A DNA stretch of 64,000 nucleotides, taken from NCBI RefSeq assembly GCF_003171515.1, contig NC_089390.1:9800274-9864273 (forward strand), given 5' to 3'. The position numbers and the translations under genes are program-made. This DNA is from Pyrenophora tritici-repentis (taxonomy: Eukaryota; Ascomycota; Dothideomycetes; Pleosporales; Pleosporaceae). Below, piece after piece: positions 40,950 through 41,522 of this stretch. Numbering within the stretch: the first letter of the stretch is position 1; each line of letters begins with the position of its first letter. Below the pieces are notes generated by a model that had not been told where the DNA came from, did not search any database, and worked only from the letters and a program-made list of their open reading frames with translations.

Positions 40950-41522
40950 CTAGAGAAAAGCTAGTAACTCGCGCGCAAAGTAGCGCCTAGCCAATTGAGA
41001 ATCCTTCTCTTGAATAGTAACCCTCTTTGCGTGAATAGCATTGATGTTGCAGTCTATAAAAGTTATTAAATGAAAAATAGTATAGGGTAGATAGACTATA
41101 CCCTCAAAATAACCAACTAAGAAAGCTTCTGTAGCTTCCTGAAGAGCTTCGATTGCAGATCGTTGAAAGCGGATATCGGCCTTGTGCACCTGTGCAAATT
41201 CGCGCACTACGCGGGAAAAGGGGAGTTTTCGCAAGAGTAGTTCAAAACCTCTCTGGTATCTCTTGATTTCCCGTAATGCGACAGCTAAGCTAAATTAGAA
41301 AATAGCTGTGATAAACGACTGTGATAACCTACTGCCTGCCTTAAACTTGCGCTTCTTCTTAACAGCTACAGGTGCCTTTCGCGTAGACTTTCCTGCTACT
41401 TGACGTCTAGCCTTACTAGCAAGGGCCTTCTGAGCCGGCTTGCCGCCAGTAACTGTCTTGCCATCAGGACCACCCCGGCCGGCTTTACCGGTGACCTTAG
41501 GCCGTGGTTTTGTCCTTGCCAT
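40950..41522 (-). CDS. Histone H3-like protein encoded inside hAT 4
   Basis: Exons 41522-41333, 41284-41102 and 41053-40950 join in frame to 158 aa (canonical H3 is about 136). The start is MARTK as in H3. A tail about 20 residues longer follows, with H3-like GGKPAQKALASKARR, then the histone fold: KAGTVALREIKRYQ, LLRKLPFSRVVREFAQ, ADIRFQRSAIEALQEATEAF and DCNINAIHAKRVTIQEKDSQ. Loop 1 has the canonical H3 length, without the two-residue CENP-A insertion. Odd features: residues equivalent to the K9 and K27 contexts are altered (GKTVTGGK, ARRQ), and the C-terminus RRYFARELLAFL differs from the usual end. Introns are 48 nt each, GTAGGT/TAG and GTATAG/TAG. The protein should enter nucleosomes as an H3 variant, but expression is unproven. 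It is probably a host gene captured by the transposon. Confidence 0.9.

What the first reader, a model, noticed from the sequence alone, without database searches (positions are those of the whole stretch)
40950..41522. A complete histone H3 variant gene riding inside a hAT transposon
Seen: three exons splice in frame to a 158-aa protein that begins MARTK and carries a full H3 fold (TVALREI, RKLPF, AIHAKRVTIQ). It lies between perfect 17-bp TIRs and an 8-bp duplication. The tail is about 20 residues longer than canonical H3, the K9/K27 contexts are altered and the C-terminus is different. Family knowledge: H3 is normally host-encoded and very conserved. Inference: the transposon captured a host H3 and let it diverge, perhaps to alter the chromatin or silencing of its own copies. 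I do not know of a described example, but cannot search.
Basis: partly seen in the sequence, partly recalled or inferred. Interest (0 to 1): 0.95.

Follow-up and report, generated by a model that had tools for sequence, protein, structure and literature searches.

The report
Histone H3 gene inside fungal transposon
One of 33 copies of a mobile DNA element in the wheat tan-spot fungus carries its own unusual histone H3 gene; this was reported in 2013, and the gene is likely older than the recent burst of copies and likely helps the element to escape silencing.

Summary
A 3-exon, 158-aa H3-like gene (H3L) lies in a 2595-bp element (40638-43232) with 17-bp inverted repeats and an 8-bp target duplication. 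The genome is Pyrenophora tritici-repentis (Ptr). It holds 33 H3L copies (22 in the short form, 11 in a 5.87-kb form with hAT transposase and a central ORF); 30 of 33 are intact, and all 31 inverted-repeat pairs enclose one. It is not new: Manning et al. 2013 described this H3L, both element sizes and ESTs; Dhillon et al. 2019 found H3-carrying hATs in other fungi. Added here: (1) a tree groups H3L with H3-like proteins of P. teres and others and rejects Ptr's own H3 as its nearest kin, so the burst is recent but H3L is likely old; (2) in P. teres, H3L and the central ORF bear consecutive locus tags; (3) H3L lacks ARKS at K9 and K27 but keeps K4, K14, K36 and K79; (4) a TTATCACAG motif, mostly in tandem, lies in 6 of 7 predicted introns of the three genes. 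Most likely mechanism, untested: an anti-silencing cargo that cannot carry H3K9 methylation. A neutral passenger is nearly as likely.

The parts
40638..43232 (.). short (2595-bp) H3L-carrying hAT element
   Evidence: TIR + TSD; 21 other short-type copies, some interrupted
40638..40654 (+). left 17-bp TIR TACGCTGGCAAATGGGT
   Evidence: 31 forward and 31 reverse in the genome, control 0
43216..43232 (-). right 17-bp TIR
40630..40637 (.). 8-bp target-site duplication GCCAAGCC, left
43233..43240 (.). 8-bp target-site duplication GCCAAGCC, right
41333..41522 (-). H3L exon 1 (start codon at 41522)
   Evidence: matches P0001/P0002
41285..41332 (-). H3L intron 1, with tandem TTATCACAG x2 (13-bp step)
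41102..41284 (-). H3L exon 2
41054..41101 (-). H3L intron 2 (no TTATCACAG motif)
40950..41053 (-). H3L exon 3 with stop
42033..42954 (+). predicted chimeric gene, 274 aa: N-terminal part of the central ORF fused to the hAT C-terminal dimerisation region; exons 42033-42143, 42189-42528, 42581-42954
   Evidence: same-length Ptr records P0202/P0203 named Dimer-Tnp-hAT; described by Manning et al. 2013
40734..40784 (+). subterminal inverted repeat arm, TTGGG-rich, pairs with 43150-43200 (98%)
43150..43200 (+). subterminal inverted repeat, partner arm

Best explanation
The window holds one of 33 copies of a hAT-type DNA transposon that carries an intact, divergent histone H3 gene (H3L), and H3L is predicted to enter nucleosomes and would keep the element's chromatin free of H3K9 methylation, so that the element likely escapes silencing. 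Shown: the element, its copies, the intact gene, the loss of the ARKS contexts at K9 and K27 while K4, K14, K18, K23, K36, K37 and K79 are kept, the H3-like clade to which H3L belongs, and consecutive locus tags of H3L and the central ORF in P. teres. Inferred: the age of the cargo; incorporation into nucleosomes; that K9/K27 enzymes cannot use it; that this benefits the element; that the acidic central-ORF protein acts as a chaperone or DNA-binding partner, with the tandem TTATCACAG sites as its address. Expression rests on ESTs reported by Manning et al. 2013.
For: H3L intact in 30 of 33 copies (29 of 32 fetched, plus the window); all 31 TIR pairs enclose an H3L; the 22 short-type copies lack most of the transposase and of the central ORF, yet carry H3L. 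Alignment to host H3: K9 to V (or T), S10 changed, K27 to Q, S28 to V, K56 to R; K4, K14, K18, K23, K36, K37, K79, H113, R116, D123 and L126 kept; no ARKS. The K9 lysine is absent in 5 of 7 H3L-clade sequences and none of the 7 has ARKS at K9. The clade stands apart from canonical H3 and CenH3 (99/95 with Massariosphaeria). Ptr and P. teres H3L match at 72 of 96 core but 28 of 48 tail residues, as expected if the fold is constrained. P0094 (CFE70_001393, H3L) and P0197 (CFE70_001394, central ORF) are on P. teres contigs of the same length. The central ORF's last 90 residues hold 37 D/E and 3 K/R. Tandem TTATCACAG: 10 matches against 0.01 expected.
Against: No chromatin, protein or expression data of my own. 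'K4 kept, K27 lost' is not general: P. teres has R and Alternaria A at the K4 place, and the other six clade members keep a lysine at the K27 place. Two of 7 clade members (P0067, P0069) keep the K9 lysine. Outside Pyrenophora no species was seen with both H3L and the central ORF (capped or annotation-bound lists). One copy (L040) was heavily hit by RIP-type changes, so H3L does not shield every copy. dN/dS could not be computed; copies differ by too few changes. Manning et al. read the divergence as possible drift. The AlphaFold2 model of H3L alone was poor (pLDDT 51), and the central ORF has no fold match. The tandem motif also lies beside unrelated transposase ORFs.
Confidence: 0.38

Rival explanations
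1. Neutral passenger: the element picked up H3L by chance and a recent burst of transposition copied it; H3L does nothing for the element.
For: Most copies match the window's at 99% or more (L040 95%), so intactness says little about selection within Ptr. Manning et al. suggest drift; Dhillon et al. show RIP-killed H3 copies in other hATs.
Against: H3L belongs to a wider clade and its fold is kept better than its tail; H3L and the central ORF also occur, with consecutive locus tags, in P. teres at about 65-67% identity; H3L intron 1 carries the element's own tandem motif.
Confidence: 0.33
2. Transposition cofactor: H3L packs the element or its ends during transposition and works with the transposase or the central-ORF protein, not against silencing.
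For: H3L, central ORF and transposase share one intron and UTR motif, so they may be regulated together; the short form keeps H3L and the transposase dimerisation region together.
Against: No precedent known to me of a transposase that needs its own histone; the loss of the K9 context is not predicted by this.
Confidence: 0.12
3. Poison or dosage effect: many H3L copies make a histone that disturbs host nucleosomes genome-wide and loosens chromatin generally, which helps all transposons.
For: 30 intact copies against one canonical H3 gene found (L044) in the same genome; Manning et al. ask whether altered chromatin drove transposon amplification.
Against: Such an effect should be costly; nothing here shows protein levels.
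Confidence: 0.1
4. Recent capture of the host's own H3 transcript (Dhillon et al. 2019).
For: Stated in that paper for Ptr; H3L lacks the host H3 intron in codon 20.
Against: Tree test rejects H3L with host-type H3 (p-AU 0.00075; with P. teres H3L added 0.0013), though long branches are in play; residues shared with other H3-like proteins and not with canonical H3; two introns are present.
Confidence: 0.05

Closest known systems
Ptr H3L transduplicating hAT element (Manning et al. 2013, PMC3538342)
   Same: Same species, same H3L, long and short forms, central ORF, hAT dimerisation domain, chimeric ORF, near-identical copies.
   Different: 33 copies here against 26 there; measured 5873 and 2595 bp against about 5.6 and 2.3 kb. 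P. teres linkage, H3L clade test, K9 reading and TTATCACAG motif were not in the passages and section that I read.
H3-carrying hAT of Pseudocercospora, Cercospora and Sphaerulina (Dhillon et al. 2019, PMC6710886)
   Same: hAT with 8-bp TSD that carries H3-like sequence.
   Different: In P. fijiensis about 9.5 kb, with intronless H3 copies, one or two per element; all extra copies RIP-inactivated; the authors found no similarity of the elements to the Ptr one.
VANDAL/VANC anti-silencing transposons of Arabidopsis (Sasaki et al. 2023, PMC10398659, abstract)
   Same: A transposon-encoded accessory protein; tandem repeats in the element's noncoding parts.
   Different: VANC is not described as a histone; no sequence relation was tested; anti-silencing here is only inferred.
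Introners (PMC9860276, passages; Gozashti et al. 2022, author recalled)
   Same: Introns of different genes share sequence.
   Different: The shared motif is also in UTRs and intergenic parts of this element and is almost confined to it, so it may be a binding site rather than a mobile intron.

Membership tests
hAT superfamily | 8-bp target-site duplication | tested here: met
   13 of 15 uninterrupted short copies (window included) have identical 8-bp flanks; the two others (L017, L018) share one pair of flanks in inverted arrangement; the interrupted copy L034 does not match; one long copy TCCATGGA both sides. Flanks of the other copies were not compared
hAT superfamily | short terminal inverted repeats | tested here: met
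   17 bp, 31 forward and 31 reverse, control 0
hAT superfamily | transposase with hAT C-terminal dimerisation domain | tested here: met
   PF05699 E 2.5e-20, 72.5 bits over cut-off 21.4, long form; an in-frame stop in 2 of 11 long copies at the one codon compared
hAT superfamily | active transposition | not testable with these tools
   near-identical copies at different sites suggest recent activity only
Ptr H3L element of Manning et al. 2013 | long form with H3L + central ORF + transposase; short form with chimeric ORF | tested here: met
   read
canonical histone H3 | groups with host-type H3 in a tree | tested here: not met
   p-AU 0.00075
centromeric H3 (CenH3) | groups with the fungus's own CenH3 | tested here: not met
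   p-AU 0.00038
H3 fold | PF00125 over its cut-off | tested here: met
   108.9 bits against 26.4
anti-silencing transposon gene (VANC-like in action) | removes silent marks from the element | not testable with these tools
   no chromatin data
introner family | same-sequence introns at new positions, mobile on their own | tested here: inconclusive
   6 of 7 predicted introns share a motif, but it also lies outside introns and beside two pogo-like transposase ORFs

The most novel reading that the evidence does not exclude
A hAT transposon lineage in Pyrenophora has carried its own histone H3 for a long time as an anti-silencing weapon: an H3 that cannot be methylated at K9, loaded by the acidic protein encoded beside it and aimed at the element by tandem TTATCACAG sites in its noncoding DNA. 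It would be the first selfish element known to me to replace the host's silencing substrate, the nucleosome itself, at its own copies.
Probability: 0.15. Interest if true: 0.88.

Novelty: already known. Interest (0 to 1): 0.45.

Why it matters
The element itself is in print since 2013. What is added turns a curiosity into a testable claim: H3L does not look like a recent copy of the host gene but like one member of a wider H3-like clade, found beside the same partner gene in a second Pyrenophora species, and it lacks the residue contexts that heterochromatin enzymes use. If H3L does what this predicts, a selfish element would defeat silencing by supplying its own nucleosome part, and H3 evolution, usually seen as frozen, would have an arms-race branch.

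Tried and rejected
Rejected: direct capture of Ptr's own H3 and CenH3 origin (tree tests); a chance ORF (33 copies, named records); TIR-bounded copies without H3L (0 of 31 pairs); a second, diverged H3L family in this genome (a search with the Alternaria protein P0065 found the known H3L copies, the canonical H3 and the CenH3-like gene); the idea that TTATCACAG marks only introns (it also lies in UTR and intergenic parts, and beside two pogo-like transposase ORFs, L048 and L049). Led nowhere: the profile search with six H3L relatives listed mostly long, repeatedly matching proteins in its capped 120 rows and showed no new H3L-like fungal protein; the solved-structure search gave canonical H3s; AlphaFold2 of H3L (pLDDT 51); Foldseek of the central ORF (one match, E 9.1). 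Not possible: dN/dS across species (no fungal DNA other than this genome), TIRs around H3L in P. teres. The TTATCACAG motif contains TGATAA on the other strand, a GATA-factor type site (recalled); not tested.

Dropped rows: the tree used 18 rows picked by me: 16 of the 193 H3-type proteins listed plus two from this genome (CenH3 in part only); P0094 was left out because its gene model lacks part of the fold. My first-named group of five H3L rows was not one clade: two metagenome proteins fall inside and Massariosphaeria stands on the other side of the 96/93 branch; the seven together are (99/95). The central-ORF alignment used 12 of 22 hits; the other 10 are Ptr records. H3L was compared in 32 fetched loci plus the window. 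Papers: Manning 2013 passages and section 20 part 1 of 2; Dhillon 2019 parts 1-4 of 7; Sasaki 2023 abstract and outline; PMC9860276 passages; PMC4994206 passages, reference list only; others search listings, not opened.

Full report
What is there. Three exons on the minus strand (41522-41333, 41284-41102, 41053-40950) join to 477 nt, 158 aa, with two 48-nt GT..AG introns. Records named histone H3 of Pyrenophora tritici-repentis match at 99% over the whole length (P0001, P0002); from this I name the genome. The element runs from 40638 to 43232, with 17-bp TIRs and the TSD GCCAAGCC.

Copies. The histone profile finds 41 matches in the genome. Of these, 33 are H3L copies, counted by coordinates against the element matches; the others include the canonical H3 beside an H4 gene (L044; H4 named by eye), a CenH3-like gene (L043) and further histone-fold genes. 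31 forward and 31 reverse TIRs pair up, and all 31 pairs enclose an H3L (two pairs enclose two). Two sizes exist: 11 long copies (5873 bp in the one read whole) and 22 of the short type (2595 bp in the window; some interrupted or with small indels). Of 32 fetched copies, 29 have an intact H3L (three of them with one amino-acid change); L023 has a 1-bp deletion; L009's gene is split, with an exon-3 match about 6 kb away inside the same TIR pair (C6:2875168); and L040 has lost its start codon and has stops. With the window: 30 of 33. L040 differs from the majority of the 11 long copies at 251 sites, 207 of them C>T or G>A and 171 in the CpA context of RIP. The other ten long copies differ from the majority by 2-9 substitutions over 5140 bases. 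The burst is therefore recent, and RIP has touched at least one copy.

Already in print. Manning et al. 2013 (PMC3538342, section 20) describe this H3L in a hAT element of this species, long about 5.6 kb (10 copies) and short about 2.3 kb (16 copies), the central ORF, the chimeric ORF of the short form, and ESTs for H3L in pathogenic and non-pathogenic isolates. Dhillon et al. 2019 (PMC6710886) report H3-carrying hATs in six Mycosphaerellaceae, the extra copies RIP-inactivated, and call the Ptr event recent, independent and a transcript capture. In six literature searches no further listed title or abstract start is about H3L; some listed papers (for example PMC8616336, PMC12543289) hold the search terms and were not opened.

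Genes of the long form. The long form encodes H3L; a central ORF of 354 aa (splice sites chosen by me; same length as the Ptr record P0194 and one residue apart); and a transposase of about 848 aa with PF05699 (E 2.5e-20). Two of 11 long copies have an in-frame stop in the transposase at the one codon compared. The central ORF has no Pfam match over cut-off and no fold match (model pLDDT 74). Its last 90 residues hold 37 acidic and 3 basic residues. Relatives lie in Ptr, P. teres (65%), P. seminiperda (50%), Boeremia, Exserohilum, Parastagonospora nodorum and metagenomes, 22 hits in all.

H3L is likely older than the burst. In the tree of 18 rows, H3L of Ptr and P. teres, proteins of Paraphoma and Alternaria and two metagenome proteins form a group (96/93); with Massariosphaeria the seven are 99/95 against canonical H3 and CenH3. 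My first-named group of five rows, without the metagenome proteins, was not one clade. Holding Ptr H3L with host-type H3 is rejected (p-AU 0.00075), also with P. teres H3L added (0.0013), and so is a union with CenH3 (0.00038). Two long end branches (Alternaria, P. teres) call for caution. Independent of the tree, N[IL]NAI is in 9, RY[YF] near the C-terminus in 8, and KDS[QR]LA in 6 of 193 listed H3-type proteins; all carriers are Ptr H3L or rows of this clade. In P. teres, H3L (P0094, CFE70_001393) and the central ORF (P0197, CFE70_001394) bear consecutive locus tags, with the same longest-contig length, 5,608,903. I could not see the DNA there, so the hAT ends are untested. No central-ORF hit came from Alternaria, Paraphoma or Massariosphaeria, and no H3L from Boeremia, Exserohilum, P. 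seminiperda or P. nodorum was listed; both lists can miss unannotated genes, and the H3 lists were capped at 120. This disagrees with a recent capture of the host transcript: amplification is recent, capture need not be. H3L lacks the host intron in codon 20 and has two others.

Residues. Against host H3, H3L keeps R2, T3, K4, K14, K18, K23, R26, K36, K37, K79, H113, K115, R116, D123 and L126, and changes K9, S10, K27, S28, K56 and C110 (the exact K9 partner depends on where the tail gap is placed, V or T). It has no ARKS. Among 7 clade members the K9 lysine is absent in 5, and none has ARKS there; at K27 only Ptr lost the lysine; P. teres and Alternaria lack K4 (read by eye). That K9 and K27 methylation mark silenced chromatin, and that the enzymes read ARKS, is recalled knowledge.

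A motif nearly private to the element. TTATCACAG in pairs 13 bp apart (up to three mismatches) occurs 10 times in the locus with a long copy, against 0.01 expected. Of 21 single sites (up to one mismatch) in the long element, 18 lie in noncoding DNA, which is 1784 of 5873 bp; all 11 sites in introns are in the sense direction, in 6 of 7 predicted introns of all three genes. In the whole genome the pair (pattern, one mismatch) has 75 matches, of which by coordinates all but C2:4952392 lie in these elements; that one is an orphan transposase fragment (L050). With two mismatches there are 158 matches (reversed control: 1), only part of them listed; of those listed, two more lie outside, L048 and L049, beside pogo-like transposase ORFs (family named by eye, recalled). 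In relatives P0214 and P0215, whose models run through the second central intron, the translation fits the same pair at the same place. So H3L intron 1 carries the element's own mark, as expected if H3L has been built into the element.

How it most likely works. The best single reading is an anti-silencing cargo: an H3 that cannot take K9 methylation, made from many copies, placed in element chromatin perhaps by the acidic central-ORF protein. The Arabidopsis VANDAL/VANC system (PMC10398659 abstract) shows that transposons can carry such functions and have tandem target repeats in noncoding DNA. I put 0.38 on this and 0.33 on a passenger. Nothing here shows protein, binding or chromatin.

Verdict. 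Observation confirmed; finding already known; the likely age of H3L, the P. teres link, the K9 reading and the motif are additions that make the function testable.

Noticed in passing
window 40411-40473 and 43233-43295: 63-nt perfectly complementary arms on both sides of the element: it sits inside an older palindromic repeat.
   Followed up: partly
L048:1541-1562 and L049:1316-1337: The tandem TTATCACAG motif also lies beside pogo-like transposase ORFs with no similarity found to this hAT; a shared regulator (GATA-type site?) is possible.
   Followed up: partly
L050 (G000:C2:4951000-4953800): Orphan fragment of the transposase gene of the long form (99.8% over 1849 bp), without H3L in the fetched stretch.
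   Followed up: partly
L017 and L018 (C4:2926140-2939371): Two nearby inverted copies share one pair of flanking 8-mers in inverted arrangement, as after an inversion between copies.
   Followed up: no
window 1977-4364, 25493-28423, 36743-39274: Three further long ORFs that look like hAT transposases by eye (ORF list), in a window dense with retrotransposon-like ORFs.
   Followed up: no
P0204 (Ptr, TUN199_10205): A second, 44%-identical central-ORF subfamily is on record for Ptr; in this genome the search with it found the H3L element's own central ORF and one weak 35-residue match at C7:2008686.
   Followed up: partly
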